From positions 1 through 54,601 of the IMG/VR virus record IMGVR_UViG_3300036715_000254: a stretch of 54,601 nt of DNA; one strand, written 5' to 3'. The number at the start of each line of letters is the position of its first letter. The stretch's first letter is position 1. Shown in pieces: positions 26,177-54,058 of the stretch. The stretch comes from a virus. Under the pieces are notes generated by a model. The model did not search any database. It had not been told where the DNA came from and worked only from the letters and a program-made list of their open reading frames with translations. A program made the position numbers and the translations under genes.

Positions 26177-26177
26177 C

Positions 26178-26513
26178 ATGCTAAAAGAACTGCTATCCGC
26201 TAATATTGACCTCTACATTGATCAGGGTGATACCTATTATAAGGTATTCACTATCCGTGACAATACGGGTACAGTAATCAATCTAACTGGATTGGAAGTT
26301 ACTGCATCACTAAAGCGTTATTTCAATGTTGGCACTGACTACCCATTAACCGCCGAGATTACTGATGCAGTCGGTGGAAAAGTTACTCTTAGTATGACAG
26401 AAGTTGATACGAGTGACTTGGTTTATGACCGTTATGTATATAACGTGAAGCTAAGTGACGGAACTGATACAACAAAAATTATGAGTGGTCAAGCACTTGT
26501 AACACCGGTATAA
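26178..26513 (+). CDS. BppU-like or Ig-like virion protein, 111 aa
   Basis: Sequence pattern IDLYIDQGDTYYKVFTIRD, then LTGLEVTASLKR and GGKVTLSMTEVDTSDL is that of small N-terminal-domain baseplate or fibre accessory proteins (BppU-N-like). A single beta-sandwich. Probably an adaptor for neighbouring fibre genes. Confidence 0.7.
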   Translation: MLKELLSANIDLYIDQGDTYYKVFTIRDNTGTVINLTGLEVTASLKRYFNVGTDYPLTAEITDAVGGKVTLSMTEVDTSDLVYDRYVYNVKLSDGTDTTKIMSGQALVTPV

Positions 26514-26516
26514 AAT

Positions 26517-27503: not shown

Positions 27504-27511
27504 GAAATTAA

Positions 27512-30355
27512 ATGGCAAATACAAATGCAGCAATGGTAGATCTACCATTTTTCGAACTATGCAATCAAGCACCTGTAGCATCTTCTGCGTTAGCATGTAT
27601 GACTACAGTAGAGACTGGTGATGATCGTTTTATCTATTACATTTCAACATCAGCTTTTTACCGTTATGACACGGTAGCCGATACATGGCAGCAATTAGCT
27701 AACCCGTATGTTGCTCCATCAGCAGTCATTAATATGCGCTACTCAGCACGCCGTGGTTATCATGGACGTGTGTTAAGTGCTACATCAACAACTGTACAGA
27801 TTGCTGGTCTACGTGGTCCAACTTTAGATGGAACTTCTCTCGAAGTTCTCAACGGAACTGGATCCGGACAAAAACGTACACTAACCTACACCGGTGAAAC
27901 CATCCACGAAGCTGGTGTTATTACAGGTACTGCAACTAATAACATTTCCGACTCGTTGAAGAAATGGCAAGTTAACCAATGGGCTGGGTACTTGGTTGGT
28001 ATCACATTTGGTACTGATGCAACACAATACAAGAAAGTCTTGTATAACGATGCAACAACTTTGTATATTTCTGATGCAAACTTGATGCCACATGATCCAT
28101 GGAATAATCAACCGTTTGTTGCAGTTGCACCTTATGCGCTCCCAGTAACGACTGCTGGTTCACAAGCTCACTATCAGATTATGTCCCAGACATTCTCAGT
28201 ACCAGCTTGGACAACTATTCCAGATTACACTAGCTTCTACACTACTAACACTGGTGGTATCTATGTTGTAACATCCGCCGCTGCGGCGCCGTTCTTGAAC
28301 TTGATGTATTATGATGTACTGCATGATGCGTGGCAGGTAAAGACAGTTCCACAATCACTTATCCTTGCAGCAATAGGCACTGACATTTCCATAGAACGCA
28401 CTAGTAAAGTTGGAACTGCTTTGTTAACTAAAATAGGAACCACATCAGCAACTGCTCGTACACTAACTGACTCTGGCTTGAGCATGGCAGTTGGTGCATA
28501 TGCGAATTACCGTTTACTAATTACTAGTGGAACTGGTATTGGACAGAGTCGGCGTGTTGTTCATAATACCGCAACTACATTTACAATTCCAAAAAATTGG
28601 GATGTCACTCCTGATGCAACAACTGTTTATGAACTATGGCCCGACTTTGATCGTATCTACGTCGGTGGTGCCGCTGGCGCAGCGATGTACGCATATTCAC
28701 TAGAAAATGACTATTGGATGCAAGGTCAAAATTTTGATGACGGTATCACAAACACAATGTCAGTCACAATGAACGGTTGGGTTCCAGTTGGTGTAACTTC
28801 TGGAACTCGTATCGCCACAGGTATTCAAGCTATTAACTCCGCTCCAACTGCGGGTGGAACTGGTTATACAATTGGTGACGTACTTACATGTGCAATCGGT
28901 GGCGGTGGTGCTCAAGTTCGTGTAACTGCAATTACATCCGGTGGTGTTGTGACTGCACTCGAATTGATTAACTCCGGTACAACCACGGGTTATACTGTTT
29001 CTACAGGTAATGCTACTACTGGCGGTACTGGTACTGCATGCACATTAAACATTACCGTTGTTGGACCAACAGTCAACGTAGTGACAGCAACCGCCGCATG
29101 GTTTAAGAAAGGTGATGTTGTAACCGGAGCTGGATTTAACGATGCGCTGTACAATACAGCATTAACTATCCTTGGTGTATCCGCAGTAACTACATCTACC
29201 TGCACATTCAGTATTGCTACTACAGCAGCGGCCAACATGGCAACAGCTAATGCATTTTCAACTACTACAATTGTTGACTGTAATAAAAACTGGGTTGTCA
29301 ACGAACATGCTGGACGTCTTGTTCACATCATGGTTGCTGGTACTGCACCAACATCACAGATTCGTTGGATTGTTTCTAACACATCTAACACACTGACATT
29401 TGCTGCTATCACTACTGCCGTTAACGGTACATCGAAATATTGTATCTATGATGCAAAAGTATTTGGTATTGACGACCAGCGTAAGGAAACAGTAATGAGC
29501 GCGTACGGTGTTGCTACCGGAGGTTCAACAACCACACTGATTGACTCTACTAAAAATTGGGTTCCAAACTCATGGGTTGGATATACGTTCAAAGTAGAAG
29601 CTGGAACTGGTTATGGATCAGGTCGTATTGCGATCACTGCAAACACAGCTACAACACTAACATACTCAGTGCAGTCATTTACTCCGGATGCAACAACCAA
29701 ATATGAAATTGCTGATGCGTGGGGTATTGCAACTGCTGGTGCACTAAGCTCATTGACTGATACGACAAAGGTTTGGCCTGTTAATATCTGGGCTGGTAAG
29801 CGTATTCGTATTACCGCTGGTACACTATCCGGTACTGAAACCATTACAACTGCAAACACTGCTAACGTGTTAACTCTTACTGGTACACCAGATACAACAT
29901 CAGTATATGCTATTATTAGCATTCCAGCGCGTGGTGCTGGCACGGCCTTAGTATGGACCTTTGGTGCTACACAGTCTTCTAATAAGCGGTCGATTTATTC
30001 CCCACGGGGCGGTGGCTCTAATACATTCGACGTATACGATATTGCAACGGGACGTTGGAGATTCGGTACATTTATCGGTACACAAGCCGAACTATATAAC
30101 GTAGGCTCTAGTTTTTCGTATGACGGCATCGATGGTATTCTTTTATCTCGTTCTGTAGCGTCTAACCCAATTCGTATCTTCAAGTACAATATCAATACCA
30201 ATAAGACAGTTGGTTTGGCTACTACTACATTCACTCAAAATACAGTGCACGTTGGTAACTTCTTGGAGATTGTAAATTCTCCAACAACTCTGTATCCATA
30301 TCTGTATACACTACAGAACACTGGAACATTGTTGGCTAGAGCGGTATTGTTCTAA
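27512..30355 (+). CDS. Large virion/fibre protein, 947 aa
   Basis: Low charge and strongly beta-rich. A recurring unit (TDSTKNWVPNSWVGYTFKVE, and similar at several positions: W-x-N-x-WAG-x-x-I and T-G-S-R-x-x) repeats every 70-100 residues. Near residues 455-520 is a Gly-rich insertion (GGTGYTIGDVLTCAIGGGG, then GGVVTALELINSG) similar to the unit in the 38673 protein. A stretch AGAAMYAYSLENDYWMQG is beta-propeller-like. Likely a large fibre or head-decoration protein. Confidence 0.7.
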   Translation: MANTNAAMVDLPFFELCNQAPVASSALACMTTVETGDDRFIYYISTSAFYRYDTVADTWQQLANPYVAPSAVINMRYSARRGYHGRVLSATSTTVQIAGLRGPTLDGTSLEVLNGTGSGQKRTLTYTGETIHEAGVITGTATNNISDSLKKWQVNQWAGYLVGITFGTDATQYKKVLYNDATTLYISDANLMPHDPWNNQPFVAVAPYALPVTTAGSQAHYQIMSQTFSVPAWTTIPDYTSFYTTNTGGIYVVTSAAAAPFLNLMYYDVLHDAWQVKTVPQSLILAAIGTDISIERTSKVGTALLTKIGTTSATARTLTDSGLSMAVGAYANYRLLITSGTGIGQSRRVVHNTATTFTIPKNWDVTPDATTVYELWPDFDRIYVGGAAGAAMYAYSLENDYWMQGQNFDDGITNTMSVTMNGWVPVGVTSGTRIATGIQAINSAPTAGGTGYTIGDVLTCAIGGGGAQVRVTAITSGGVVTALELINSGTTTGYTVSTGNATTGGTGTACTLNITVVGPTVNVVTATAAWFKKGDVVTGAGFNDALYNTALTILGVSAVTTSTCTFSIATTAAANMATANAFSTTTIVDCNKNWVVNEHAGRLVHIMVAGTAPTSQIRWIVSNTSNTLTFAAITTAVNGTSKYCIYDAKVFGIDDQRKETVMSAYGVATGGSTTTLIDSTKNWVPNSWVGYTFKVEAGTGYGSGRIAITANTATTLTYSVQSFTPDATTKYEIADAWGIATAGALSSLTDTTKVWPVNIWAGKRIRITAGTLSGTETITTANTANVLTLTGTPDTTSVYAIISIPARGAGTALVWTFGATQSSNKRSIYSPRGGGSNTFDVYDIATGRWRFGTFIGTQAELYNVGSSFSYDGIDGILLSRSVASNPIRIFKYNINTNKTVGLATTTFTQNTVHVGNFLEIVNSPTTLYPYLYTLQNTGTLLARAVLF

Positions 30356-30618
30356 TGTTTCTTAGTACACTTTATTACTATTTCTTTGGAAAGACTACTG
30401 CGGTACTCAAATTAGTATCGTCGAAGTTAAGTTTTCCGAGTGTAATTCGAACTAACAAGTTTGGTGATATTGTTCACTCAAACAAAGCGCCTGCAATTAC
30501 ATATACAAAAAAGTTTGGTGATATTGTTCACTCAAACAAATTTGGAGCAGTCACTTACGCATCTAAGTATGGGACAGTTAGCTATAAAAACACCTTTAGT
30601 ACGGTAACACAAAAATGA
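30355..30618 (+). CDS. Small repetitive virion protein, 87 aa
   Basis: Starts within the upstream stop. Residues 1-25 are hydrophobic and aromatic. Residues 34-80 contain KFGDIVHSNK twice, with further related KFG/KYG units. The DNA shows the same: a 30-nt exact repeat. Role unknown, in the structural block. Confidence 0.6.
   Translation: MFLSTLYYYFFGKTTAVLKLVSSKLSFPSVIRTNKFGDIVHSNKAPAITYTKKFGDIVHSNKFGAVTYASKYGTVSYKNTFSTVTQK
30457..30540 (+). repeat. Exact 30-nt direct repeat
   Basis: The same 30 nt occurs at 30457-30486 and 30511-30540, 54 nt apart start-to-start, within the 87-aa gene. It encodes KFGDIVHSNK plus flank and points to a recent internal duplication. Confidence 0.9.
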
Positions 30619-30908
30619 GCACTAAAATCGAAACCCGCCTGATTGGCACAACAGTAACAAGCACCGCGACATTCAAGAATGATGCAAATGCCATCTTTGC
30701 TCCTGCTATAGTTAACCTAAAATACAAGAAACCCGATACTCCAGGTACAATTGTTAGCAACGCAATATCTCCAGATGTCAGTAATAAATACATTGCCCAA
30801 GTATTGTTAGATACAGCAGGCACATGGTACTTCCGTTGGGAAGCAGTTGATACAAATGCAGTCGCTGAAGAATTTTCAATTTTAGTGACTGATACTAAGG
30901 TTAAATAA
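30615..30908 (+). CDS. Ig-like small virion protein, 97 aa
   Basis: Overlaps the previous stop. The sequence TRLIGTTVTSTATFKNDANA, then AGTWYFRWEAVDTNAVAEEF is of the Ig-like or fibronectin-like beta-sandwich type common in phage accessory structural proteins. A single domain; function inferred. Confidence 0.65.
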   Translation: MSTKIETRLIGTTVTSTATFKNDANAIFAPAIVNLKYKKPDTPGTIVSNAISPDVSNKYIAQVLLDTAGTWYFRWEAVDTNAVAEEFSILVTDTKVK

Positions 30909-33496
30909 TGACAGCTTTTGTTGCTAATAACGGCACACTTAATTATTTTGATGCGTATTCTGGTGGATCAGTAATTGCGACTCTTGATACATACACGATT
31001 AGTAACAGTTCAACTTTAGTTGTTCGAACAGATAGTAACGCATGTGCTAATCACTCAGTTGCTTTTGGTTCACTTGATACAGTATCTTTTACGGGTACTG
31101 GGGGTGAGTTACGTTTTGACTCAACCTATGTGCGTGTTGTTGCTTATACTGGTGGATCCGGTAACAGCCCAGCTTTTGGTGCTGCTATTTCTCAAGGTGG
31201 TGTGAGTGGTGTATTTCTTGGCGCTTGGACTAACTGGGCATCGGAATGTATTGTTCCTGGCGCTGCTATTGGCGCTACCGGATATATCAAAATTGGTGGT
31301 GTAACTGGTGGTGCGTTTGCAGCAGGTACGCTGACTGGTATTATAGCAACTTGCTCCGGACCTGATGTTCAAGGATGGATTGAAGTTCGCGGCGATACTA
31401 TTGCGACAATTACTGTTCCACGTATTGGTAAAGTAACTTCCGTTGAAGCATGGTATGAATTGGGTACTACAAACGGAGCTCGTGGACAAATTCTAGATTG
31501 TCCAACTTGTGCAACCAACGCGGGTGTATTTCCCGGTGTTTGGATTGAAACTTCCGCTGGATCTGGAGTTTATGAGCAATATGCGGGTGTTGGTTCACAG
31601 GTTGCTTTATCAACAACTGCTACTGACGTTCGTGCAAAGTGGATTTGGTCCACTGTTACTGGTATTCGCATTGGTAATGACGGTACCAATGCGGTTGGTT
31701 TCTTACCTCCTGCAGGCTGCAGGGTACGCATTCCAGCAACTATCTTGACCAACAGTACCCGCACATCATCGGGCACGGGCCCGCGGGTATTACCTAACGC
31801 GACTATTGCTACTCGTCAAGAATTGGTGACGACTGGTGCTGGTTACTTTGATTTGCGTGGTTGCGTCATTCAATGGTACATGAACTTCAGCCAGGCGTTT
31901 TACGCCAAATACAAAAGCTGTGCGATCAATGACTCAATGATCTTGTCAGAAATCGCATCGCCTATAGACGTTGACGATTGCATCGTGTCTCCGACACAGG
32001 CTCAATTGAACCTTGCCGCCAACTTTTCATCCTGCTTTGCCGGTGGAACTATCAGCAATACTCGCTTTGTGCGCTTCTCGCTGGCGGCGGCTTCAGCCTA
32101 CGCGGCGCAGATCAACTACCTGACAGGGCAAACGTTCAGCAATGTGAGTTTTGAAAGTCTGACGCTTCGGGCCAATGCTTCCACAGGCACCATCACTTCT
32201 ACTCAGGCGGTGAACTGCACTTTCACCAATTGTACCCTATTGGGTGCGCGCGGATTGTTTGTAAGCGCACAGCGTTGCACCTTCAACAACACGACCTACT
32301 ACGACCACAGCATCACTACAACCACTACCAGCACCAACCCTATGTCTGGGCTGGACTTCACGACTGGATGTTCTGGTAACACGGTCAACGGCTGGTCGAT
32401 GCCGATGCCAAACTTCGGACCCTACAACGGTCTAGTTTCAGTGAATGCTTGCTACAGCACGCTGGTTAAGAACATTGGCACAGACTCGGTGAGCACGCTG
32501 GCTATGAATGCCGCAGTAACGGGCGCTGGCGTCAATGGTGTGGGTAACAATGATGGAATCACTATCAAGCGCATGTACTTAACCAACACGCGCACAGGTC
32601 CGTATTCCTTTGTCAACTCGGACACAAACGTTCTGATTGAGAACTGCCGAGGTGACTACGCTGATACATCAGTCATGGTGGCGCTGAATGCCACTTACAA
32701 GAACTGCGGTCTGACTGCTTCTGCAACCGGGCAAGTCTCGGTCTATGGAACCCATTGGGGTACACGTTTCACCAGCACAACTGCTGGATTCTTGGACTTG
32801 CTTTGCAACGAGCCTACTGCTAGTAGCGCAGCCCAATGCTCCGTTACTGGAGGAGCACCACAGTTTGACTCAAACGGATCTGTACTACTGACAAAAGCTG
32901 GTGACCAAGTGACTTGGGAAATGTCATTCTACGCTATCGGATACACTGCATTTACTAATGCTCTGACAACAGCAACTGGAACTAACGTTACATGGACATC
33001 TGGCTCAACTTGGGGTAACCATACAATTGAATTTGCAATTAATACTGGTTCTGGATACGGTGCTTGGACTGCACTGAACGCCGTTAACTTGAGTGCTGAT
33101 ACTTTTAATAGTACCACTGGTTTCAAGCTGAAGATTCGTGCCACTACACTAACACCAGCTTCTAGCAATATACTAACTCGTCTATCAATTCCGCTAACAA
33201 CCACAAGTTCTGATCAACAGACAAAATTATACCCACTATCCGTAAACACTATTACATTTACTGGTTTACCTACTGGATGTGATGTGGTTGTATTGACTGC
33301 TGGAACATCAACTATTCTTGATCAAGTTGATGCATTAGCAGCAACAAGTTATTCTTACACCTATTCGGGTGCTCAAAATATTGACATTGGATTTATTCAA
33401 TCAGGATATGTTCCTTACTACATTCGAAATATTCCGCTTGGAACTGCTGACTCGAGCATTCCAGTCGCTTTGACTGTGGACCGTAATTATATATAA
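30908..33496 (+). CDS. Mosaic fibre protein with beta-helix-like centre, 862 aa
   Basis: Starts in TAATG after the previous gene. Residues 1-270 and 640-862 have the Thr/Gly/Ala-rich beta composition of neighbouring genes. The central stretch, about residues 271-637 (31720-32820), is different in base composition (GC-richer, with G/C-ending codons) and in type: short strands with many Asn, Cys and Thr (NCTFTNCTLLGARGLFVSAQ, NVLIENCRGDY) that look like a right-handed beta-helix, as in receptor-binding or polysaccharide-degrading fibre domains. A new receptor-binding module is the likely meaning. Confidence 0.7.
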   Translation: MTAFVANNGTLNYFDAYSGGSVIATLDTYTISNSSTLVVRTDSNACANHSVAFGSLDTVSFTGTGGELRFDSTYVRVVAYTGGSGNSPAFGAAISQGGVSGVFLGAWTNWASECIVPGAAIGATGYIKIGGVTGGAFAAGTLTGIIATCSGPDVQGWIEVRGDTIATITVPRIGKVTSVEAWYELGTTNGARGQILDCPTCATNAGVFPGVWIETSAGSGVYEQYAGVGSQVALSTTATDVRAKWIWSTVTGIRIGNDGTNAVGFLPPAGCRVRIPATILTNSTRTSSGTGPRVLPNATIATRQELVTTGAGYFDLRGCVIQWYMNFSQAFYAKYKSCAINDSMILSEIASPIDVDDCIVSPTQAQLNLAANFSSCFAGGTISNTRFVRFSLAAASAYAAQINYLTGQTFSNVSFESLTLRANASTGTITSTQAVNCTFTNCTLLGARGLFVSAQRCTFNNTTYYDHSITTTTTSTNPMSGLDFTTGCSGNTVNGWSMPMPNFGPYNGLVSVNACYSTLVKNIGTDSVSTLAMNAAVTGAGVNGVGNNDGITIKRMYLTNTRTGPYSFVNSDTNVLIENCRGDYADTSVMVALNATYKNCGLTASATGQVSVYGTHWGTRFTSTTAGFLDLLCNEPTASSAAQCSVTGGAPQFDSNGSVLLTKAGDQVTWEMSFYAIGYTAFTNALTTATGTNVTWTSGSTWGNHTIEFAINTGSGYGAWTALNAVNLSADTFNSTTGFKLKIRATTLTPASSNILTRLSIPLTTTSSDQQTKLYPLSVNTITFTGLPTGCDVVVLTAGTSTILDQVDALAATSYSYTYSGAQNIDIGFIQSGYVPYYIRNIPLGTADSSIPVALTVDRNYI

Positions 33497-33499
33497 ATA
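33492..33499 (+). promoter_or_regulatory. T4-type late promoter
   Basis: A perfect TATAAATA, 24 bases before ATG 33524, with an AAGGATCT ribosome site between. Confidence 0.7.
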
Positions 33500-33523
33500 A
33501 ACAGATAATCACAAGGATCTAAT

Positions 33524-35161
33524 ATGGCGAAAATTACTAGTAAAGCACTATTAAACGTAGGAACAGAGCTCACTATCGACGAAACGCTAAAGACCATTAC
33601 TCTTAACGTTGCGGGTAATTTGGTTGCTAAAGACGGTGTTACCCTACAAGCACTATACTCTAAATTGGTAGATTTGTGGGCGACTATAACATACCAAGAT
33701 AGTCCATTCCCAATGTACGCGATTGACGCGTTATCCGGACAATTTCAATTCGGTACTGACGGTGCAACATATTCAGGTTGGAAGCCAGCTAATGACACTA
33801 CTCGCGAAATGCTGCGTGACGGTGGTTGGTCGGAATATAACTCAACGGGTGTTTTGGCACGTCAATATACTGGTATTGTAGGTCTGGGTGTTGTATCTGC
33901 AGGTTCTCAATTGTACTGGCAAAAGACTTCTACTGGCGCTCCAACTAACTTCACCTTCACTGACCAATGTAACGAAGGTATCCAAGTTTACGGTAACATT
34001 ACCGCGGATGCGACTACAACAACATTTGATGACCGTACATTCTTCAAGACATTCGTTCGTGAATACCAAAAGAAATACAAAGACTCCGTTCTGGCTGATA
34101 CTGGTAAAACAGCAACTGGCGCGTATTTGGTTAACATGTTGCTATCCAACGAAAATGACTTGGATATTACTGTAGCGGACGCATCTATTGGTACATCACC
34201 ATACTCTGAAATCAACGTAAAGTATTTCAGCCAAGCATTCAGCAAGGCAGTTGATATTACTGGTGGTACAGCACGTGACTTTGGTATTGTTATTGACGTT
34301 GGTACTCACTCTGGTGTTGACGGTGTATCCAATGGTACTACTACATTTACTACAGCAGCAGCAGGTATTACTGGTGCTAACTACACTGGTGGTACACTGA
34401 TTGTTCACGAAGGTGCTGGAAAAGGCACATACACAATTTCTGGTACACCAGCGGCTGATTCTATTACAACCACGGTTGCAGTTTCTGGTTCAGCTTCTGG
34501 ATTGAGCTTTACATTGCAACGTGCAACACCTGTTGCAACTTCTCTACAGCAAATCTATACAAAGATCCAGTATCTGTTGCGTCAAAACAGCAACATTAAT
34601 GCTGTTAGTGGTGGTACATCAGTTACTGGTAAAACTGCATCTATTCTGTTGAACTTTGTTGGTTCTGCTCTGAAGGCTGGTTTCTACGCTCCAACAAACC
34701 CAGCGGGTGGTGGCACTGGTGTTACTATTATGGGTTACGCAACTGCGGACACAAATAGCTTCACTTCATATGATAACACAGCAGCGACACGTGATTATCC
34801 ATATGCTGCGGCTGGTACAATTAGCTTCAACACCCCATTAGTTGGAGCAGGTTCTAGCTACCGTCTGATGTTTACTACACCCCCTGGCGCTGGTAATGAC
34901 TACGGCGAATCTGGAGCAATTACTGTAAACAACGCATCAGGAACTCCAATTACTGGAACTATCAGTTCCGCAAGTATTGCTTTCGATTACGACTATGATG
35001 GTAATGTACAGGGTGGTTTTACCGGCGGTACGGATCGTCCAGTTACTCTAATTGGTATTAAACCCGGTGCTGGTAAGTTTGTGGTAGCTACTGGTTCGTT
35101 AAATCGTAGCAAAACTATTGCACTATCACTTGTTGCAGAACAAGATAGAGTCTATTCTTGA
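33524..35161 (+). CDS. Major structural/fibre-like protein, 545 aa
   Basis: Preceded by a perfect late promoter and a good ribosome site. Residues 1-140 carry a well-structured N-terminal domain (AIDALSGQFQFGTDGATYSG, then GWSEYNSTG and YWQKTS). The rest is Gly/Thr/Ala-rich with many short strands. Similar proteins occur in T4-like and other environmental myophages as tail fibre or head decoration proteins. Probably highly expressed. Confidence 0.7.
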   Translation: MAKITSKALLNVGTELTIDETLKTITLNVAGNLVAKDGVTLQALYSKLVDLWATITYQDSPFPMYAIDALSGQFQFGTDGATYSGWKPANDTTREMLRDGGWSEYNSTGVLARQYTGIVGLGVVSAGSQLYWQKTSTGAPTNFTFTDQCNEGIQVYGNITADATTTTFDDRTFFKTFVREYQKKYKDSVLADTGKTATGAYLVNMLLSNENDLDITVADASIGTSPYSEINVKYFSQAFSKAVDITGGTARDFGIVIDVGTHSGVDGVSNGTTTFTTAAAGITGANYTGGTLIVHEGAGKGTYTISGTPAADSITTTVAVSGSASGLSFTLQRATPVATSLQQIYTKIQYLLRQNSNINAVSGGTSVTGKTASILLNFVGSALKAGFYAPTNPAGGGTGVTIMGYATADTNSFTSYDNTAATRDYPYAAAGTISFNTPLVGAGSSYRLMFTTPPGAGNDYGESGAITVNNASGTPITGTISSASIAFDYDYDGNVQGGFTGGTDRPVTLIGIKPGAGKFVVATGSLNRSKTIALSLVAEQDRVYS

Positions 35162-44857: not shown

Positions 44858-45000
44858 TGGCTAACAAACTAATTTTTACATGTAACGCATGTGGAGCAAC
44901 AGGAACTATCAAGGTTGATGACGACTTCGAGATTACTGTATGTCCATGCTGCGGAAATTGTCTTGATGTCGAGAATGATGATCTCGACGAGTACGAGTGA
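44857..45000 (+). CDS. Small zinc-ribbon protein, 47 aa
   Basis: ATG in a TAATG overlap with the thioredoxin. Two knuckles are visible: C9-x2-C12 (TCNACG) and C29-x2-C32 (CPCCG), then an acidic tail. A nucleic-acid or protein-binding zinc ribbon; family not known. Confidence 0.75.
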   Translation: MANKLIFTCNACGATGTIKVDDDFEITVCPCCGNCLDVENDDLDEYE

Positions 45001-45437
45001 CATGGTATTATAATAATGAAGTAATAGACGATATTGCTCAGTTCCCTCCAAAGGCACTAGGTTTTGTTTACAAAATTGAAAGAATTCACGATGGGAAATT
45101 CTACTATGGTAAGAAACTCGCGTACTTTACGAAGACTGCACTTAAGACGGTTACGCTTAAAAATGGCAGTAAGAAAAAGAAAAAGGTTCGGACACTCATA
45201 CCTTCTGATTGGAAGACCTACTGGAGCTCGTCGCCTGAGCTTATTGCGGATGTACAGGCTCTGGGGGCTGATAGCTTCCGAAGGGAAATCCTCTGCTTTT
45301 GCGAGAACAAAGGATCGTTAAGCTATTACGAGTTGCGCTTTCAGATGGATGATCGCGTTCTAGAAGTTGGGGACATGTCGTATAACGGGATAGTCAACGC
45401 ACGAATTCATCACAGTCACGTTCGACCAATTCTTTGA
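44997..45437 (+). CDS. GIY-YIG-like nuclease, 146 aa
   Basis: GTG start overlapping the zinc-ribbon stop (GTGA). Residues 22-40 (GFVYKIERIHDGKFYYGKK) are the variant GIY-YIG strands seen in phage mobile nucleases, and SLSYYELRFQMDD holds the likely catalytic Glu. A Lys-rich insertion (SKKKKKV) lies between. It may be a homing endonuclease next to nrdJ, a common target of such elements, or a phage-encoded resolving nuclease. Confidence 0.7.
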   Translation: MTWYYNNEVIDDIAQFPPKALGFVYKIERIHDGKFYYGKKLAYFTKTALKTVTLKNGSKKKKKVRTLIPSDWKTYWSSSPELIADVQALGADSFRREILCFCENKGSLSYYELRFQMDDRVLEVGDMSYNGIVNARIHHSHVRPIL

Positions 45438-45610: not shown

Positions 45611-45862
45611 ATGATGGAACAAATTGAGCGGATAAATAACCCTTTACTGAAAAAGTATGCTGAGGAAGCTCAGTACAAGCATATAGGTGATTTTGGGATG
45701 ACAGTTATGGGTGGAGTTGATTTAGAATTTTTTGCACAAATGATTGTTATAAAATGTGCTAGATTGTGTACTGAACCTTATTTTACACCTGATGGTTGGA
45801 GCCATACAAATGCTGATCAACGCTGCTCAGATTTGATTAAAGAACACTTTGGAGTTGAGTAA
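45611..45862 (+). CDS. Small hypothetical protein, 83 aa
   Basis: First gene after the promoter, with an AGGAG site. Residues 45-60 (DLEFFAQMIVIKCARLCTEP) resemble the small-protein motif F-A-x-x-I-V-x-x-C-A-x-I/L also in the product at 6013. Overlaps the queE start (TAATG). Function unknown. Confidence 0.65.
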   Translation: MMEQIERINNPLLKKYAEEAQYKHIGDFGMTVMGGVDLEFFAQMIVIKCARLCTEPYFTPDGWSHTNADQRCSDLIKEHFGVE

Positions 45863-46737
45863 TGTTTGGAACAAATGAAATCATCGGGAAAAAGTTCTTT
45901 AAGGATGTGCCAGCAAAGTCACTGTTCGTGACTAGCATGTTCTTTACTCTACAGGGTGAAGGACCGTATGCAGGACAACCAGCATTCTTTGTGCGCCTTG
46001 CGAAATGTAATCTAACATGTAGCTTTTGTGACACCTTCTTTGATGACGGTGAATGGATGACGTATGAAGAAATTCTCACAAAAGCTAAGAGTATTATCTT
46101 CTCTTATTGGGCAGATCAAGAAAAAGTAATCCCAATGTGGTTACATTCTCCGAAGCGTATCTTCGATCGTGTTGTTCTAGTAATGACTGGCGGCGAGCCG
46201 TTGCTACAAGAAAACATTAATGACTTCTTGTTAGTAGCTGGCACAACTATGTTTGGTTGTACTCAAATTGAAAGCAATGGTATTCCTGAAACACCTATCC
46301 CAGATTTTGTTACTTTGGTATGTAGCCCAAAATGTGCTGAGAAAGATGGTAAAGCAACTAAGTATTTCAAGCCGAGTAAGACTATTCTAGAACGAGCAGA
46401 TTGTTTAAAGTTTGTTATGAGCGCGGATCCAGATAGTCCATACTACACAGTTCCTGATTGGGCTCACTCGTGGGCATTAGAAACAGGAAATCCAATCTAT
46501 TGCAGTCCAATGAACATCTACAACGACTTCCCGCAGAAGATTAAATTGCTGCGTGCTGAGAAGGGTGTTATTACAATGGCTGAACGTAGCACTGTTGATG
46601 AAGTGATTAACTTTTTTGAACCTGGATTATTGAATATGGAAAAAGTTAGAGCTAATCATGAGTATGTAGGTAAATATTGTATGGAACATGGATTTAAGAT
46701 GAACATGCAGATGCATTTATTTGCTAATCTAGCATGA
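45862..46737 (+). CDS. queE: 7-carboxy-7-deazaguanine synthase, radical SAM (QueE-like)
   Basis: Converts 6-carboxytetrahydropterin to 7-carboxy-7-deazaguanine (CDG). Residues 49-56 hold C-x3-C-x2-C (CNLTCSFC), the iron-sulphur cluster site, preceded by FTLQGEGPYAGQPAFFVRL, the QueE signature. A GGEP motif is at 110-113. At 291 aa it is longer than many bacterial QueE (about 210-225 aa), with an insertion around residues 80-100 and a longer C-terminus. It starts the deazaguanine set with folE and queD. Confidence 0.92.
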   Translation: MFGTNEIIGKKFFKDVPAKSLFVTSMFFTLQGEGPYAGQPAFFVRLAKCNLTCSFCDTFFDDGEWMTYEEILTKAKSIIFSYWADQEKVIPMWLHSPKRIFDRVVLVMTGGEPLLQENINDFLLVAGTTMFGCTQIESNGIPETPIPDFVTLVCSPKCAEKDGKATKYFKPSKTILERADCLKFVMSADPDSPYYTVPDWAHSWALETGNPIYCSPMNIYNDFPQKIKLLRAEKGVITMAERSTVDEVINFFEPGLLNMEKVRANHEYVGKYCMEHGFKMNMQMHLFANLA

Positions 46738-46928: not shown

Positions 46929-47235
46929 TGTACGATAGATTTGATTATGAGCAGCAAATTATGACTTGCTGGAATATCACTACAGAATTGCAAACACTGT
47001 CTGAAGTAATTATGGGAAAATAGCTATCAAAGGTAAACGTTGGGTTATTGTTAACAACGAATCAAAATTTTTCAATCAAACTGAGCTAGATAATTTGGAA
47101 GAACCGTATTCGTATGGTAGAATGTTAAAAGACCGTGGTAAACGTGTTGGAACTATATTTCAATATGGATTAAATTGGTCAGAATTAAAACAAACTTATA
47201 AGAAAGTATCACAAAATGTCATTTCAAAAAACTAA
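46928..47235 (+). pseudogene. Frame-disrupted small gene(s) before folE
   Basis: ATG 46928 in a TAATG overlap opens 31 codons (MYDRFDYEQQIMTCWNITTE and on) to TAG at 47021. From 47005 a different frame is open for about 75 codons without a start codon (IKGKRWVIVNNESKFFNQTE) to TAA at 47233. The first piece looks like the beginning of a known type of early protein. A frameshift or a deletion joining two genes is likely. The region overlaps the start of folE. Confidence 0.5.
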
Positions 47236-47896
47236 AATCGACCCAGTGCTTGGCGCTGAAATCCACCAACATTTGTTAAAAATGGGTGTAGAAACTCCAA
47301 TGAATTTTGACAAATTAAATGTTGAGGCAGAAACAAAAATTGATATTATCCAGAAACACATGACAGCAGTTTGGGAGACAATGGGGTGTGACTTGAGTGA
47401 CGATAGTCTAGCAGACACACCAAAGAGAATTGCTAAAATGTTAGTGCTTGAATTAAATTGGGGTATGTTGCCTGATAATTTTCCAAAGTGCACTACTGTT
47501 GACAACAAGATGAAATACGACGAAATGGTTGTTGAACGCAATGTTAATGTTATGTCTACATGTGAACATCACGGAGTTGTCATTGATGGTCTTGCAACGG
47601 TCGGTTATATTCCTAAGCAAAAGGTATTGGGCTTGTCAAAGATTAATCGCATTGTGGAATATTTCAGTAAGCGACCACAAATCCAAGAGCGTCTAACAGA
47701 ACAAATTTATTACGCACTTCAGTACATCCTGGAAACAGATGACATTGCAGTCGTGATTAATGCCCAGCACTATTGTGTTAAGAGTCGTGGTGTTGAGGAT
47801 ACTGGATCAAGCACTATCACTTGCAAACTCGGTGGTGGATTTAAAACAGATGCGGCTCTACGTAAAGAGTTCATGGATCTACACAACTCTCATTAA
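47216..47896 (+). CDS. folE: GTP cyclohydrolase I (FolE-like)
   Basis: Makes dihydroneopterin triphosphate from GTP, the first step of 7-deazaguanine synthesis. Zinc ligands are Cys116 and His119 in STCEHHG and Cys187 in QHYCVKSRG, all conserved. Length 226 aa is normal for FolE. The start overlaps the upstream disrupted reading by 20 bases, without a strong ribosome site. dpdA begins two bases after its stop. Confidence 0.95.
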   Translation: MSFQKTKIDPVLGAEIHQHLLKMGVETPMNFDKLNVEAETKIDIIQKHMTAVWETMGCDLSDDSLADTPKRIAKMLVLELNWGMLPDNFPKCTTVDNKMKYDEMVVERNVNVMSTCEHHGVVIDGLATVGYIPKQKVLGLSKINRIVEYFSKRPQIQERLTEQIYYALQYILETDDIAVVINAQHYCVKSRGVEDTGSSTITCKLGGGFKTDAALRKEFMDLHNSH

Positions 47897-47898
47897 TT

Positions 47899-49152
47899 AT
47901 GTTTGAATATGTAGCATCGGGCTGTAGCTCTATTAAACTCTTCTACGCTGAAACTTCCGAAGCAGAGAATGTCGAGTTTTTCAAGAACACTTATGGGTCA
48001 TTGAACGGACCCAATAGTCATAAAATCTCTCTACTGTATAACGCATACACGGAGAAACTAGCGGGTCCAATCTTTAAGAATGCGTTCCGCGATCACGTGC
48101 ACGCAATCCACGCTGACTCGGGTGGACTGCAAATGATTACTCTGGGTAAGACAATCACTGAGAAGTTGAAACAAGACGTGTACAAGAGCCAAAGCGATAA
48201 CAGCGACGTAGCAATGTGCTTTGACGTTATTCCAGTTCGTATTGACGGTGGTAAGTCGGATCGTTTAGATCTAAGTGGTCGGACATTTGACATCAAACAA
48301 TTGGAAGAAACTGCACGTGCTACTGGAAAGAACATCCGCCAGCAGATTGAGTTTTTCTTAAGTGAGAAAACTGTTGCCAAGCCTTATTTGATTGCACAAG
48401 GAAATTGCTATGATTCTTACATGCGTTGGATTGAGTATATTGTTGATGAACTCCCATCTGATTACGTGCAGCATATTGGGGGTATTGCTATGGGTGCAGC
48501 AGCTCTTGGGAAAGGTACACTTGAAGATATAAAGCGAGCATTTTACTTTACTCAATTGCCGATTGATTTGAAAGAGAATCATATGCACTTGCTGGGCGTA
48601 GGTTCGATTGCTCGACTGTTACCAAACCTTGTATTCATTCAGAATGGATTGTATGACGGTGTGAAGATCTCATATGACTCAACTACTCATACTATTGGCA
48701 CTATCATGGGTCGCTATTACATGGGTGAGGGTGCTATTATGATTGGTCGTCACTTTACTAATGAGTACCAGAACATTCTGGATGACATTAATAAGAACTT
48801 CCCGGGTGTGTTGAACATGACTGTTAAAGACTTCCATGAGTCGATGAATACACCAACTCGTGGCTATGCGGAAAAGTATGGTAGCCCAAATAATCCAATC
48901 CAAGCACACTTAGCGTTCAGTGCATCGGGCATTAAGAACTTCATTGTACAATTGGAGTCGATTTACAAGAGTAAAGACAAATTGCTAAAAACAGCAAAGG
49001 GCAACACTAAGAACTATATCTCATCGCTGTACAATGTAAAGAATACTGCTGATTTTGAGAACTGGTTGCGTCATGTTGGACCATATGTTGACAGCGCACC
49101 TGTTGAAGTTTACACTGAAGACCGTAACACACTAGAGGAATTTTTCGCATGA
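47899..49152 (+). CDS. dpdA: DpdA-like DNA deazaguanine transglycosylase (TGT family)
   Basis: TGT-related enzyme expected to exchange guanine in DNA for a 7-deazaguanine base. The nucleophile motif is HADSGGLQM with Asp73 (the DSGGFQ of TGT), and MCFDVIP with Asp109 fits the second conserved Asp. IGGIAMG and MHLLGVGSI correspond to later TGT strands. No Cys occurs after the NCYDSY segment, so the C-x-C-x2-C zinc site of bacterial TGT is missing. At 417 aa it is within the phage DpdA size range. Its place between folE and queD supports DNA, not tRNA, modification. Confidence 0.9.
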   Translation: MFEYVASGCSSIKLFYAETSEAENVEFFKNTYGSLNGPNSHKISLLYNAYTEKLAGPIFKNAFRDHVHAIHADSGGLQMITLGKTITEKLKQDVYKSQSDNSDVAMCFDVIPVRIDGGKSDRLDLSGRTFDIKQLEETARATGKNIRQQIEFFLSEKTVAKPYLIAQGNCYDSYMRWIEYIVDELPSDYVQHIGGIAMGAAALGKGTLEDIKRAFYFTQLPIDLKENHMHLLGVGSIARLLPNLVFIQNGLYDGVKISYDSTTHTIGTIMGRYYMGEGAIMIGRHFTNEYQNILDDINKNFPGVLNMTVKDFHESMNTPTRGYAEKYGSPNNPIQAHLAFSASGIKNFIVQLESIYKSKDKLLKTAKGNTKNYISSLYNVKNTADFENWLRHVGPYVDSAPVEVYTEDRNTLEEFFA

Positions 49153-49511
49153 TTACCCGTCAAATCCAAGTATCCTTCCAACGTGAAGGTATCCATTGCT
49201 ACCCCGCCGCAGCAACTGACTTAGCATTGGCTGATGTTGCTTTTCTAGCAAATCCACATCGTCACATATTCCACTTCTACGTGAATGTCAGCGTAGTGCA
49301 TAATGACCGTGACATTGAATTTATCATGTTAAAGCGTGAACTCGAGAAGCTGTATTCCAATAGCATTATGCAATGTGATAACAAGTCTTGTGAAATGCTT
49401 GCAGAAGATTTGATAAATTATTTGGTATCTCGCTATCCTGGTCGTACAATAGAAGTTAGTGTATTTGAAGATAACGAAAATGGAGCAGTGTTAAATTATG
49501 TCCAAGACTAA
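49149..49511 (+). CDS. QueD-like tunnelling-fold protein lacking the usual catalytic Cys
   Basis: The 120-aa pattern fits the 6-pyruvoyl-tetrahydropterin synthase fold: strand VSFQREGIH with His16, then HRH with His37 and His39 as the possible zinc triad, DIEFIMLKRELEKL, and SCEMLAEDLINYLVSRYPG, then SVFED with the conserved Glu. The Cys that QueD uses just before its HGH motif is not here. Similar short proteins are found in T4-like phages. It may be a substrate-binding or accessory partner of DpdA or QueD. Coupled to dpdA by ATGA. Confidence 0.65.
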   Translation: MITRQIQVSFQREGIHCYPAAATDLALADVAFLANPHRHIFHFYVNVSVVHNDRDIEFIMLKRELEKLYSNSIMQCDNKSCEMLAEDLINYLVSRYPGRTIEVSVFEDNENGAVLNYVQD

Positions 49512-49860
49512 CCGCACATGGGGGACTTATGAAGTTCTTCTAGAAGATGATAATATAAAAGTGAAAAAGATTGTACTTTTTCCAAGTCACGCATTGTCGC
49601 TACAACGACACGAAGATCGGGATGAATACTGGACTATTACAAAGGGTACGGGACTTTCTTTCTCTGAATCAAACAAAAAAACAATTGATGAAGGTGGTAA
49701 AAAACATAAATCTTATCTTATTTCTGTTGGTGACATAGTTCTTAACAGAGTTGGTGATTGGCACTCAATTAGCAATATTAGCAACACAGAAAACCTAGAG
49801 TTCATTGAAATTCAAACTGGAGTTTGTAATGAAAATGATATTGAAAGATTTGTAGAATGA
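49498..49860 (+). CDS. Mannose-6-phosphate isomerase/GDP-mannose pyrophosphorylase-type cupin, 120 aa
   Basis: Matches the C-terminal cupin of ManC/type II PMI: WGTYEVLLEDDNIKVKKIVL, then LSLQRHEDRDEYWTITKGTG with metal ligands (Gln, His, Glu), GDWHSISN with the last His, and LEFIEIQTGVCNENDIERF. In bacteria this domain isomerises mannose-6-phosphate or sits in the sugar nucleotide enzyme. Here it stands alone, overlapping the QueD-like gene by 14 bases and the glycosyltransferase by four. It may make or bind a sugar phosphate for DNA glycosylation. Role inferred. Confidence 0.8.
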   Translation: MSKTNRTWGTYEVLLEDDNIKVKKIVLFPSHALSLQRHEDRDEYWTITKGTGLSFSESNKKTIDEGGKKHKSYLISVGDIVLNRVGDWHSISNISNTENLEFIEIQTGVCNENDIERFVE

Positions 49861-50885
49861 TTTATATTGTCCCAATTGAACCTATTGATGCCCGTTACAC
49901 AAAGCAGTGGTATGATAACATTCCGAAAATTATAGCAGCGGCAGGTCAACATTGTATCACAATTGACGGTTGTGTGACTGATGGTAGTGTAACCAAAGGT
50001 GCTTTCCTTGATTTTGGTGCGACTAATGCATATAAAGCGTCGCAAGTACAAAATATCGCAAACTTGTTCAGTTCTGGAAATATCAAAGCAGGCGACAAAT
50101 TCCTTGTGACTGATGCATGGAATTTTGCTGTAACTGCTATTCGATACATGAGCGAATTGCTCGATATTCCAGTTGAAATCCATTCTATCTGGCACGCTGG
50201 ACATTATGATCCAACTGACATTCTTGGTATGAAGATGGGTGAGTGGGCTTTTCACCAAGAACGTGCATGGTACATAGCAAGTGATGTGAATTACTTTGCT
50301 ACTGATTTCCACAAAGATATGTTTGTCCGTAACCTTATTGTCACTGATAAGAAAGCGGTACGTTCTGGTCAACCACACAGCCCATTGATTGATTTGTTGA
50401 CTCCATACATTAAAGCACAAAAGCGTGATATTGTATTGTTCCCACATCGTCTGAACTCGGACAAGCAACCCGAAATCATTGACAACATGGCAAGCGACAT
50501 TAAAGCAAACGTAATTATCAATCAGCGTATGGGTTTGACGAAGGAACAATACTACGACATGGTTGGTCATTCCAAGGTATTGTTTAGTTGCTCACTTCAT
50601 GAAAACCTTGGTATCAGTATGATGGAAGGTGTCTTGGCTGGTGCAATTCCTATTGTTCCGGATCGCGCATCGTACAGCGAAATGTACCTGGATTGTTTCA
50701 AATATCCAAGCGAGTGGACTTCGTCTATAGATAACTATAAAAAGAACCGTTACGACATAGTTGCATTTGTGAATGAGAAGACCAAGAACTACGAAGATTA
50801 TTTGGATAAGTTAGAAACACAACGTAAAATATTGATAGACAACTACTTAACTCCAACTGTAATGATTGAGAACTTACTCAAATGA
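49857..50885 (+). CDS. GT4-like (GT-B fold) glycosyltransferase, 342 aa
   Basis: The C-terminal half has the GT-B donor domain: VLFPHRLNSDKQPEIID, then SCSLHENLGISMMEGVLAG, which contains the EX7E motif (Glu249 and Glu257), and PIVPDRASY. The N-terminal half (residues 1-170) is a Rossmann-type acceptor domain with no signal or membrane segment, so it acts in the cytoplasm. Position inside the deazaguanine operon, between the sugar-type cupin and queD, suggests the target is a modified base in phage DNA. Donor and acceptor are not proven. Confidence 0.85.
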   Translation: MIYIVPIEPIDARYTKQWYDNIPKIIAAAGQHCITIDGCVTDGSVTKGAFLDFGATNAYKASQVQNIANLFSSGNIKAGDKFLVTDAWNFAVTAIRYMSELLDIPVEIHSIWHAGHYDPTDILGMKMGEWAFHQERAWYIASDVNYFATDFHKDMFVRNLIVTDKKAVRSGQPHSPLIDLLTPYIKAQKRDIVLFPHRLNSDKQPEIIDNMASDIKANVIINQRMGLTKEQYYDMVGHSKVLFSCSLHENLGISMMEGVLAGAIPIVPDRASYSEMYLDCFKYPSEWTSSIDNYKKNRYDIVAFVNEKTKNYEDYLDKLETQRKILIDNYLTPTVMIENLLK

Positions 50886-51370
50886 ACTATAAATTCAATA
50901 GCACAAAAGAATATGTAGATGCATTCCCTTGCGCATACCGTCAACATAAAACTGATAGTCACTGCAATAAAATTCACGGATACTCATTCAGTATGAAGTT
51001 TTATTTTGGTGCTGACGAATTAGATGCTAGAAACTTTGTAGCTGACTATGGCGGATTGAAAGAACTGAAGAGCGTTCTGGAAAGCCAATTTGATCACACA
51101 TTGCTTGTTTCTGCTGATGATCCGGAACTGGAAACATACAAATTGCTTGAAAGCAAGAAGTTGGCTAAGTTGACAATTCTCCCTCGTTTGGGTTGTGAAG
51201 GATTAGCGGATATGCTTTACAAGTATGTCAACGGAGTCTACATCCCAGATTACTTGGGACAAGGCGAAGCTGATCGTCTGTGGTGTTATCGCGTTGAAGT
51301 TCGTGAGACACAGAGCAACATGGCTTTCCGTGAAGGTCATAGATCCGATAGCGAAGATCTATTCGTCTAA
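50882..51370 (+). CDS. queD: 6-carboxytetrahydropterin synthase (QueD-like)
   Basis: Makes 6-carboxytetrahydropterin for QueE. HC...HGY at 27-34 (SHCNKIHGYSF) gives the catalytic Cys28 and zinc His32. DYGGLKELK and FDHTLL are the usual QueD core, and VEVRET is the closing Glu strand. The position of the first zinc His in FPC-x-HRQ of relatives is Tyr19 here (FPCAYRQH), with His22 nearby; the zinc site may be altered. At 162 aa the length fits phage QueD. It closes the coupled operon from folE. Confidence 0.88.
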   Translation: MNYKFNSTKEYVDAFPCAYRQHKTDSHCNKIHGYSFSMKFYFGADELDARNFVADYGGLKELKSVLESQFDHTLLVSADDPELETYKLLESKKLAKLTILPRLGCEGLADMLYKYVNGVYIPDYLGQGEADRLWCYRVEVRETQSNMAFREGHRSDSEDLFV

Positions 51371-53344: not shown

Positions 53345-54058
53345 ATGAACACCAAATATGAATTCGTACCGGGAGACGAGAAAGTAATCGCACCGGGCCG
53401 TACCGTAAAGCGCATTCGCGCCCTAGTGACCATTGCGTTTGTATGCTCAACCGGAGACTTGGGCGGATACATTGAGAGCGAGGAGTCTCTTGCCGAGTCC
53501 GGCAATGCTTGGGTGTCCGGCGATGCTTGGGTGTCCAGCAATGCTCGGGTGTACGGCAATGCTTGGGTGTACGGCAATGCTCATGTGTCCGGCGATGCTC
53601 GGGTGTCCAGCAATGCTCAGATATACGGCAATGCTCAGGTGTACGGCAATGCTTGGGTGTCCAGCAATGCTCATGCGTCCGGCAATGCTCAGATATACGG
53701 CAATGCTCGGGTGTCCGGCGATGCTCATGTGTCCGGCAATGCTCATGTGTCCGGCAATGCTCAGATATACGGCAATGCTCGGGTGTCTGGCAATGCTCAT
53801 GTGTCCGGTGATGCTTATGTGTCAAAACTCGGTCTCATTATCTGGTTCTCGCAAGTTGGCTCAGAAAACGGAACACTGACTGTTTATAACACCAAAGACA
53901 ACACACTGGAGGTCACTCGCGGATGCTTCAAAGGCACTGTCGATGAATTCCTAACCGCATCAGAAAAGAAGCACGACGACCAGACGCACTTGGAATACAG
54001 GATGCTAATTGAAGTTGCGCATTCGCGCATTACTCGTGCAAGGAGTCAAACACCATGA
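53345..54058 (+). CDS. Hexapeptide-repeat beta-helix protein, 237 aa
   Basis: N-terminal 50 residues (FVPGDEKVIAPGRTVKRIRA, then GDLGGYIES) are a conserved head in such phage proteins. Residues 52-159 are 18 tandem hexapeptides of the form S/Y-G/S-N/D-A-x-V, which build a left-handed or similar beta-helix. The C-terminus (160-237) is a small capping domain. Function unknown; some related proteins are called polymer-forming. Its repeats are nearly codon-frozen. GAGGAGATAGTAA precedes the ATG. Confidence 0.8.
   Translation: MNTKYEFVPGDEKVIAPGRTVKRIRALVTIAFVCSTGDLGGYIESEESLAESGNAWVSGDAWVSSNARVYGNAWVYGNAHVSGDARVSSNAQIYGNAQVYGNAWVSSNAHASGNAQIYGNARVSGDAHVSGNAHVSGNAQIYGNARVSGNAHVSGDAYVSKLGLIIWFSQVGSENGTLTVYNTKDNTLEVTRGCFKGTVDEFLTASEKKHDDQTHLEYRMLIEVAHSRITRARSQTP
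53498..53821 (+). repeat. 18 tandem copies of an 18-bp unit
   Basis: Unit close to TCCGGCAATGCTCATGTG, varying mostly in the third to sixth codon positions. Copies are in register with the protein hexapeptides. All three forward frames and both strands stay open across it. Confidence 0.9.

What the first reader, a model, noticed from the sequence alone, without database searches (positions are those of the whole stretch)
47216..51370. Deazaguanine DNA-modification operon with a glycosyltransferase and sugar-type cupin built in
folE, dpdA, a QueD-like gene, a ManC-type cupin, a GT-B glycosyltransferase (EX7E) and queD run as one coupled unit with four-to-fourteen-base overlaps, with queE upstream. 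Phage FolE/QueD/QueE/DpdA are known to place 7-deazaguanines in DNA. A glycosyltransferase and sugar cupin inside the same set suggest a further sugar on the modified base, a hypermodification I do not know to be described for this base type. The link is inferred from gene order only.
Basis: partly seen in the sequence, partly recalled or inferred. Interest (0 to 1): 0.87.

Follow-up and report, generated by a model that had tools for sequence, protein, structure and literature searches.

The report
Phage operon predicted to sugar-coat deazaguanine
This virus carries a conserved gene set that probably swaps guanine in its DNA for a 7-deazaguanine and then attaches a sugar to it, a DNA decoration I could not find described, which would matter because it would add glycosylated guanine to the disguises phages use against bacterial defences.

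Summary
folE, dpdA, a QueD-fold gene, a ManC-type cupin, a GT-B glycosyltransferase (GT) and queD run end to end at 47216-51370, with gaps or overlaps of +2, -4, -14, -4 and -4 bases; queE lies upstream.

The link no longer rests on one gene order. In 36 distinct GT homologues (clustered at 90% identity) from phages, IMG/VR contigs and MAGs, every one lies beside 7-deazaguanine genes. With at least 3 kb of flank on each side, folE is present in 30/31, the QueD-fold gene in 30/31 and dpdA in 28/31. The GT has been paired with two DpdA subfamilies by at least 2-3 switches on its tree. In many relatives the cupin is fused to a nucleotidyltransferase, and other sugar genes lie nearby. AlphaFold and Foldseek make the GT a GT4-type enzyme with conserved H/R/K/EX7E.

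The base is therefore probably CDG-derived, not preQ0.

Best reading: a CDG-derived, glycosylated 7-deazaguanine in DNA. No chemistry has been shown; sugar and linkage are unknown.

The parts
45862..46737 (+). queE: QueE-like radical SAM protein, predicted 7-carboxy-7-deazaguanine (CDG) synthase
   Evidence: phrog_2076 2.5e-45; NCBIfam QueE models 5e-19 (below their cut-offs)
47216..47896 (+). folE: GTP cyclohydrolase I
   Evidence: PF01227 7.6e-57; NCBIfam NF006824 4.7e-88, over cut-off
47899..49152 (+). dpdA: DpdA2-like DNA guanine transglycosylase; D73-S-G-G76, D109 and D260 conserved
   Evidence: NCBIfam tgt_general 2.1e-6; tblastn to nt-1 DpdA2, 38.5% over 66% of the protein, 4e-41; invariant residues in a 16-sequence alignment including nt-1, Ps15 and pf16
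49149..49511 (+). q120 (phrog_17812): QueD-fold paralogue with His16/His37/His39 and Glu107, without QueD's catalytic Cys or Asp-His; candidate enzyme acting on CDG
   Evidence: AlphaFold pLDDT 94.0; Foldseek top 30 all QueD/PTPS-type, TM about 0.73 for the best; invariant residues in 31 sequences
49498..49860 (+). ManC/type II phosphomannose-isomerase-like cupin
   Evidence: PF01050 4.4e-15, TIGR01479 9.5e-15 over its C-terminal part only; fused to a cytidylyltransferase-like domain in relatives (L014: PF01467 2e-11)
49857..50885 (+). GT4-type (GT-B fold) glycosyltransferase; H113, R198, K203, E249-x7-E257 invariant
   Evidence: alignment of 28; AlphaFold pLDDT 88.8, Foldseek top hits BshA 1.1e-10, PglA, MshA
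50882..51370 (+). queD: QueD/PTPS, predicted 6-carboxytetrahydropterin synthase, with C28, D71-H72 and E142 conserved in its family
   Evidence: PF01242 1.1e-16, phrog_2389 1.8e-34; family conservation

Best explanation
A phage DNA-hypermodification operon. FolE, QueD and QueE convert GTP to 7-carboxy-7-deazaguanine (CDG). The phage has no QueC in the sequence seen, so the path probably does not go on to preQ0; the QueD-fold paralogue q120 instead probably acts on CDG, perhaps as a decarboxylase giving 7-deazaguanine. DpdA exchanges guanine in phage DNA for this base. The GT4-type glycosyltransferase then transfers a sugar from a nucleotide-sugar to the 7-deazaguanine; the cupin, and in relatives the fused nucleotidyltransferase and other sugar enzymes, help supply or tailor that sugar. 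The result would shield phage DNA from restriction. Shown here: gene content, fold and active-site conservation, conserved linkage, QueC absence. Inferred: every reaction, the order of steps, the sugar and the attachment atom.
For: All 36 distinct GT clusters lie beside deazaguanine genes; with >=3 kb flanks folE 30/31, q120 30/31, dpdA 28/31. The same holds in isolated phages Phosso, Paride/PA5oct group, ACP17 and X1 and in MAG contigs. The GT tree needs at least 2-3 switches between two DpdA subtypes (15-18% identity between them), so the GT follows the pathway rather than one inherited block. Sugar-nucleotide genes travel with it: cytidylyltransferase-cupin fusion, class I aldolase, NAD epimerase, UDP-Glc/GDP-Man dehydrogenase, DegT aminotransferase. 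GT4 fold and conserved H/R/K/EX7E. The DpdA relative in nt-1 belongs to a phage with measured deazaguanines in DNA (PMC6884629), and the related phage 6E351A has 15% dG modified (PMC12028318). QueC is over cut-off in 0/20 GT-bearing records and in 3/3 DpdA2 phages without q120.
Against: No experiment shows a sugar on any 7-deazaguanine in DNA. CDG and 7-deazaguanine carry no hydroxyl on C7 to glycosylate, so the linkage would have to be an acyl glycoside, a C-glycoside or need an unseen step. A host QueC could still supply preQ0. The cupin is missing in some GT-bearing loci (17/31 have it). The window is a fragment, so genes outside it are unseen.
Confidence: 0.62

Rival explanations
1. The GT belongs to the pathway but does not leave a sugar on DNA: it glycosylates a free base or nucleotide intermediate, or the sugar is later converted into another substituent.
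For: No hydroxyl acceptor is evident on the C7 side of CDG or 7-deazaguanine. In some relatives tailoring enzymes sit nearby (aminotransferase-like protein, PIG-L-like motif protein in X1 and L049).
Against: DNA-level glycosylation is the usual use of phage GTs next to base-modification genes (established for hydroxymethylated pyrimidines; own knowledge). Sugar-nucleotide cassettes vary while the rest is fixed, which suits a terminal decoration.
Confidence: 0.15
2. The target is tRNA: the phage makes a Q-like, glycosylated base in tRNA, as in animal mannosyl-queuosine.
For: DpdA is a TGT homologue, and a mannosyltransferase (QTMAN) glycosylates queuosine in tRNA (PMC12518689).
Against: QueA and QueC are absent in the GT-bearing records tested, so no Q precursor is made by the phage. 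No QTMAN N-terminal Pfam domain was found in any of 28 GT members. The nearest characterised relative is DpdA2, whose phage carries the bases in DNA.
Confidence: 0.08
3. The GT and cupin act on a virion protein, host polysaccharide or lipopolysaccharide and share the operon only for expression timing.
For: Phages carry GTs and cupin-fold sugar isomerases for surface glycans (PMC7824862).
Against: 36/36 linkage in unrelated genomes, including re-pairing with a second DpdA subtype, is not expected for an unrelated function.
Confidence: 0.07
4. The GT glycosylates hydroxymethylcytosine or hydroxymethyluracil, a separate modification in the same phages.
For: Known phage DNA glucosyltransferases use hydroxymethylpyrimidines (PMC13216743).
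Against: No thymidylate-synthase-fold enzyme in the window, ACP17, X1, BUCT-ZZ01 or five large contigs; only Phosso and Paride have one. Linkage is to deazaguanine genes.
Confidence: 0.03

Closest known systems
Phage 7-deazaguanine DNA modification (DpdA systems; phages 9g, nt-1, CAjan, Rosebush)
   Same: FolE, QueD, QueE and a DpdA homologue with TGT active-site Asp residues; nt-1 DpdA2 is a sequence relative.
   Different: No QueC; extra QueD-fold paralogue q120; a GT and sugar cupin inside the operon. Modifications measured in Hutinet 2019 (dPreQ0, dPreQ1, dG+, dADG) carry no sugar.
7-carboxy-/7-deazaguanine (dCDG, dDG) phages and the predicted decarboxylase DpdL (Cui 2023)
   Same: From memory, that work reports the QueC-independent bases dCDG and dDG and predicts a CDG decarboxylase; the q120 distribution would fit such a role.
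   Different: Paper not held, so identity of q120 with DpdL could not be tested. From memory its list of eight derivatives has no glycosylated one.
Queuosine tRNA glycosyltransferases (QTMAN/QTGAL)
   Same: Sugar on a 7-deazaguanine nucleoside; QTMAN is also a GT4-type enzyme (own knowledge).
   Different: Act on the cyclopentenediol of queuosine in tRNA; no QTMAN N-terminal domain here; no QueA.
BshA / MshA (GT4, bacillithiol and mycothiol synthesis)
   Same: Among the best structural matches of the GT model; X1 and L049 clusters carry a protein with a PIG-L-like motif, the partner type of these GTs (own knowledge).
   Different: About 11-13% identity; small-molecule acceptors malate or inositol phosphate; PIG-L match is weak (0.004).
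T4 alpha/beta-glucosyltransferases of 5-hydroxymethylcytosine
   Same: Phage GT decorating a modified base made by the same phage.
   Different: Different base, and no hydroxymethylpyrimidine-synthase-type enzyme in most GT-bearing genomes tested.

Membership tests
DpdA-type 7-deazaguanine DNA modification cluster | FolE, QueD and QueE homologues in one unit | tested here: met
DpdA-type 7-deazaguanine DNA modification cluster | DpdA homologue with TGT-type catalytic Asp residues | tested here: met
   D73, D109, D260 invariant with nt-1 DpdA2; tblastn to nt-1 4e-41
DpdA-type 7-deazaguanine DNA modification cluster | 7-deazaguanine present in virion DNA | not testable with these tools
   Needs LC-MS of virion DNA
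preQ0 sub-class (dPreQ0, dG+, dPreQ1) | QueC converting CDG to preQ0 | tested here: not met
   No PF06508 in the window or over cut-off in 20 GT-bearing records; positive controls nt-1, pf16 and Ps15 ring. The window is a fragment; four of the 20 are complete phage genomes.
GT4 / GT-B glycosyltransferase | GT-B fold with R/K donor residues and EX7E motif | tested here: met
   R198, K203, E249, E257, H113 invariant in 28; Foldseek BshA 1.1e-10
QTMAN (tRNA-queuosine mannosyltransferase) | QTMAN-specific N-terminal domain | tested here: not met
   No such Pfam family among matches of 28 members at E<=1
QueD (for q120) | T-fold with zinc-binding His triad | tested here: met
   Foldseek to QueD, TM 0.73; H16, H37, H39 invariant; metal binding itself not tested
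QueD (for q120) | Catalytic Cys and Asp-His pair | tested here: not met
   Leu33 stands four before His37 where window QueD has C28 four before H32; no Asp-His conserved
DpdL (predicted CDG decarboxylase) | Sequence identity with the published DpdL | not tested
   Paper not held
Type II phosphomannose isomerase (ManC C-terminal) cupin | PMI cupin profile with LSxQxHxxRxExW motif | tested here: met
   PF01050 4.4e-15; S34, Q36, H38, R41, E43 and H89 conserved in 21 relatives; the window has Tyr44-Trp45; activity untested
T4-type hydroxymethylpyrimidine glycosylation | Thymidylate-synthase-fold hydroxymethylase | tested here: not met
   Absent in window, ACP17, X1, BUCT-ZZ01 and five contigs

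The most novel reading that the evidence does not exclude
A QueC-free branch of the deazaguanine pathway, in which a QueD-fold paralogue processes CDG, ends in a glycosylated 7-deazaguanine in phage DNA whose sugar is swapped between phages by exchanging sugar-nucleotide genes around a fixed core, with a sugar attached directly at the C7 position (carboxyl or carbon), a linkage not described for DNA as far as I know.
Probability: 0.33. Interest if true: 0.88.

Novelty: new variant of a known kind. Interest (0 to 1): 0.73.

Why it matters
Glycosylated bases in phage DNA are described for hydroxymethylated pyrimidines; a glycosylated guanine analogue would add a base to that list, and would mean a sugar on 7-deazaguanine exists in DNA as well as in animal tRNA. 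The sugar genes differ between lineages, which would point to a chemically diverse family of DNA glycans shaped by restriction and other defences. It is directly testable, because isolated phages (Paride and PA5oct, ACP17, X1, Phosso) carry the same GT beside the same genes. It also gives a concrete hypothesis for phrog_17812, a family of unknown function: a CDG-processing enzyme that replaces the QueC step.

Tried and rejected
QTMAN membership: the short motif resemblance I noticed was not borne out by any QTMAN-domain match in Pfam; treated as analogy only. Single-sequence PDB search with the GT found nothing; the family profile's best hit was AmGGT 8xsg, 3e-4. PDB profile search with q120 gave only chance hits; the fold search settled it. 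Profile-profile comparison of q120 with the QueD family was weak (probability 24%), so the QueD relation rests on structure and the His pattern. tRNA route: QueA absent. Hydroxymethylpyrimidine route. QueF: only pf16 over cut-off; the weak matches in ACP17 and nt-1 fall in the FolE genes. PIG-L profile search over 11 records: only contig G006 was over cut-off, and X1 did not ring; X1's candidate rests on a motif only. Literature: ten searches found no glycosylated 7-deazaguanine in DNA, but the library holds only open-licence papers and lacks Cui 2023 and the 2024 review of the field. No promoter or terminator signal clearly beyond the shuffled expectation.
Full report
WHAT IS THERE. The window is a 54,601-base virus record. 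FolE, QueD, QueE, the ManC-type cupin and the TGT-like DpdA are supported by profile matches. The GT is weak by single-sequence Pfam (0.012) but 25 of 28 family members match Glycos_transf_1, best 8e-12.

DPDA. The closest characterised relatives are DpdA2 proteins: tblastn finds Vibrio phage nt-1 at 38.5% identity over 66% of the protein, and full-length relatives in X1, ACP17, pf16, Ps15 and BUCT-ZZ01. An alignment of 16 keeps D73-SGG-76, D109 and D260 invariant, which fit the TGT active-site motifs (motif assignment from own knowledge). Hutinet 2019 named nt-1 DpdA2 and measured dPreQ0, with dG+ and dADG, in nt-1 DNA (PMC6884629). In a related Vibrio phage, 6E351A, about 15% of dG is modified with a mass fitting dPreQ1 (PMC12028318). 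DNA is therefore the likely target.

THE GT TRAVELS WITH THE PATHWAY. tblastn found the GT in 15 phage records: Phosso (45% identity), the Paride/PA5oct group (34-35%), ACP17 (32%) and X1 (26%). In each lineage it sits beside folE, queE or dpdA. IMG/VR gave 45 more loci and genome contigs 9 confident ones. After clustering at 90% identity there are 36 distinct GTs, all with at least one deazaguanine gene within 6 kb. Of the 31 with at least 3 kb on both sides, folE is in 30, q120 in 30, dpdA in 28, queE in 20, queD in 14 and the cupin in 17. Two DpdA subtypes occur, the second about 500 residues long and only 15-18% identical to the window's. On the GT tree the subtype label needs 3 changes, with at least 2 forced by well-supported branches. 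So the GT has stayed with the pathway while the transglycosylase was exchanged. The PA5oct deazaguanine system was already noted in a jumbo-phage survey; the passages I read do not mention this GT (PMC7824862).

THE GT IS A GT4-TYPE ENZYME WITH A CONSERVED ACTIVE SITE. Across 28 sequences H113, R198, K203 and E249-x7-E257 are invariant, the positions expected for donor binding and catalysis in GT4 enzymes (own knowledge). The AlphaFold model (pLDDT 88.8, pTM 0.86) matches BshA first (E 1.1e-10), then sucrose-phosphate synthase, PglA, glycogen synthase and MshA structures. This gives fold and general chemistry, not the sugar or acceptor.

SUGAR GENES. In many relatives the cupin is fused to a cytidylyltransferase-like domain (L014: PF01467 2e-11 plus PF01050 9.6e-21). 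Ten loci carry a class I fructose-bisphosphate aldolase-like protein next to or near the GT, and eight a small protein that I read as HAD-like by its motif only (Pfam found nothing). L023/L048-type loci instead carry an NAD epimerase, a UDP-glucose/GDP-mannose dehydrogenase and a DegT aminotransferase-like protein; L010 has a class II aldolase and a DegT-like protein. X1 and L049 carry proteins with a PIG-L-like motif (weak: L049 Pfam 0.004, none for X1) and a PAPS-reductase-like protein. Synechococcus phage BUCT-ZZ01 has two GT genes flanking dpdA-q120, one of them a distant member of this family. A fixed deazaguanine core with a variable sugar module is what a terminal decoration would look like; this is inference.

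QUEC IS MISSING AND Q120 MAY REPLACE IT. No QueC in the window. None of 20 GT-bearing records, including the complete Phosso, Paride, ACP17 and X1 genomes, has a QueC match over the Pfam cut-off; X1 has one sub-threshold hit far from the cluster. Five further phages with q120 (RHph_I1_18, Bakedbeans, BUCT-ZZ01, Ahp1, phiST) also lack QueC, while nt-1, Ps15 and pf16, DpdA2 phages in whose dpdA neighbourhoods no q120 was found, have it. q120 is a QueD-fold protein: AlphaFold pLDDT 94, and the first 30 Foldseek hits are QueD/PTPS-type structures, TM about 0.73 for the best. Its family keeps a His triad (H16, H37, H39), S80-C81-E82 and E107, but Leu33 stands where QueD has its catalytic Cys, and there is no Asp-His pair. 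The window also encodes a normal QueD with those residues. The simplest reading is that QueD makes CPH4, QueE makes CDG, and q120 acts on CDG in place of QueC. From memory, Cui and co-workers (NAR 2023) predicted a CDG decarboxylase, DpdL, and reported dCDG and dDG in phages; whether q120 is DpdL could not be checked, because the paper is not held.

ALTERNATIVES. A tRNA route is disfavoured: QueA is absent in 14 tested records, QueC is absent, and no QTMAN domain is present. Hydroxymethylpyrimidine glycosylation is disfavoured: no thymidylate-synthase-fold enzyme in the window, ACP17, X1 or BUCT-ZZ01. A virion or surface-glycan role does not predict the observed linkage. The strongest remaining doubt is chemical: neither CDG nor 7-deazaguanine offers a hydroxyl at C7, so the linkage is unknown, and the GT might act on an intermediate.

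NOVELTY. Glycosylated queuosine is known in tRNA (PMC12518689) and glycosylated hydroxymethylpyrimidines in phage DNA. Searches of the open library found no glycosylated 7-deazaguanine in DNA; the two most relevant papers are not held, so prior description cannot be excluded. I rate this a new variant of a known kind.

Noticed in passing
L056 (Stenotrophomonas phage Ps15) 3508-4758: A myo-inositol-1-phosphate synthase (PF01658 1.4e-21) lies between folE and queC-dpdA in a QueC-bearing DpdA2 phage, hinting at another possible decoration of the base.
   Followed up: partly
L016:2129-2740 and related loci (cluster c18): A Vut_1 (YhhQ-like) transporter, a family that includes queuosine-precursor importers, lies near folE in about ten GT-bearing loci although these phages appear to make the base themselves.
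   Followed up: no
L014:4719-6230, L002:8373-9995 and others: A long (about 500 residue) TGT/DpdA subfamily, 15-18% identical to the window's DpdA, replaces it in most GT-bearing IMG/VR contigs.
   Followed up: partly
53345-54058, strand +: Repetitive ORF of short GNA-V/SGDA-V-like repeats that also leaves long open frames in the other readings; looks like a beta-helix-type repeat protein. The smaller overlapping ORFs are probably not genes.
   Followed up: no
44997-45437, strand +: SegE-like GIY-YIG homing endonuclease (PF19835 1.9e-24) between a thioredoxin-like gene and queE.
   Followed up: no
24122-35161: Several large ORFs (684, 947, 862 and 545 aa) match no PHROG, and the 684 aa one has no tblastn match in 50,697 phage records, so the virus seems far from sequenced isolates.
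   Followed up: no
L052 4650-5993 and 7641-8807 (Synechococcus phage BUCT-ZZ01): Two GT4-type genes flank dpdA-q120; one is a distant member of the window GT family, the other apparently a different GT, suggesting two sugars or replacement.
   Followed up: partly
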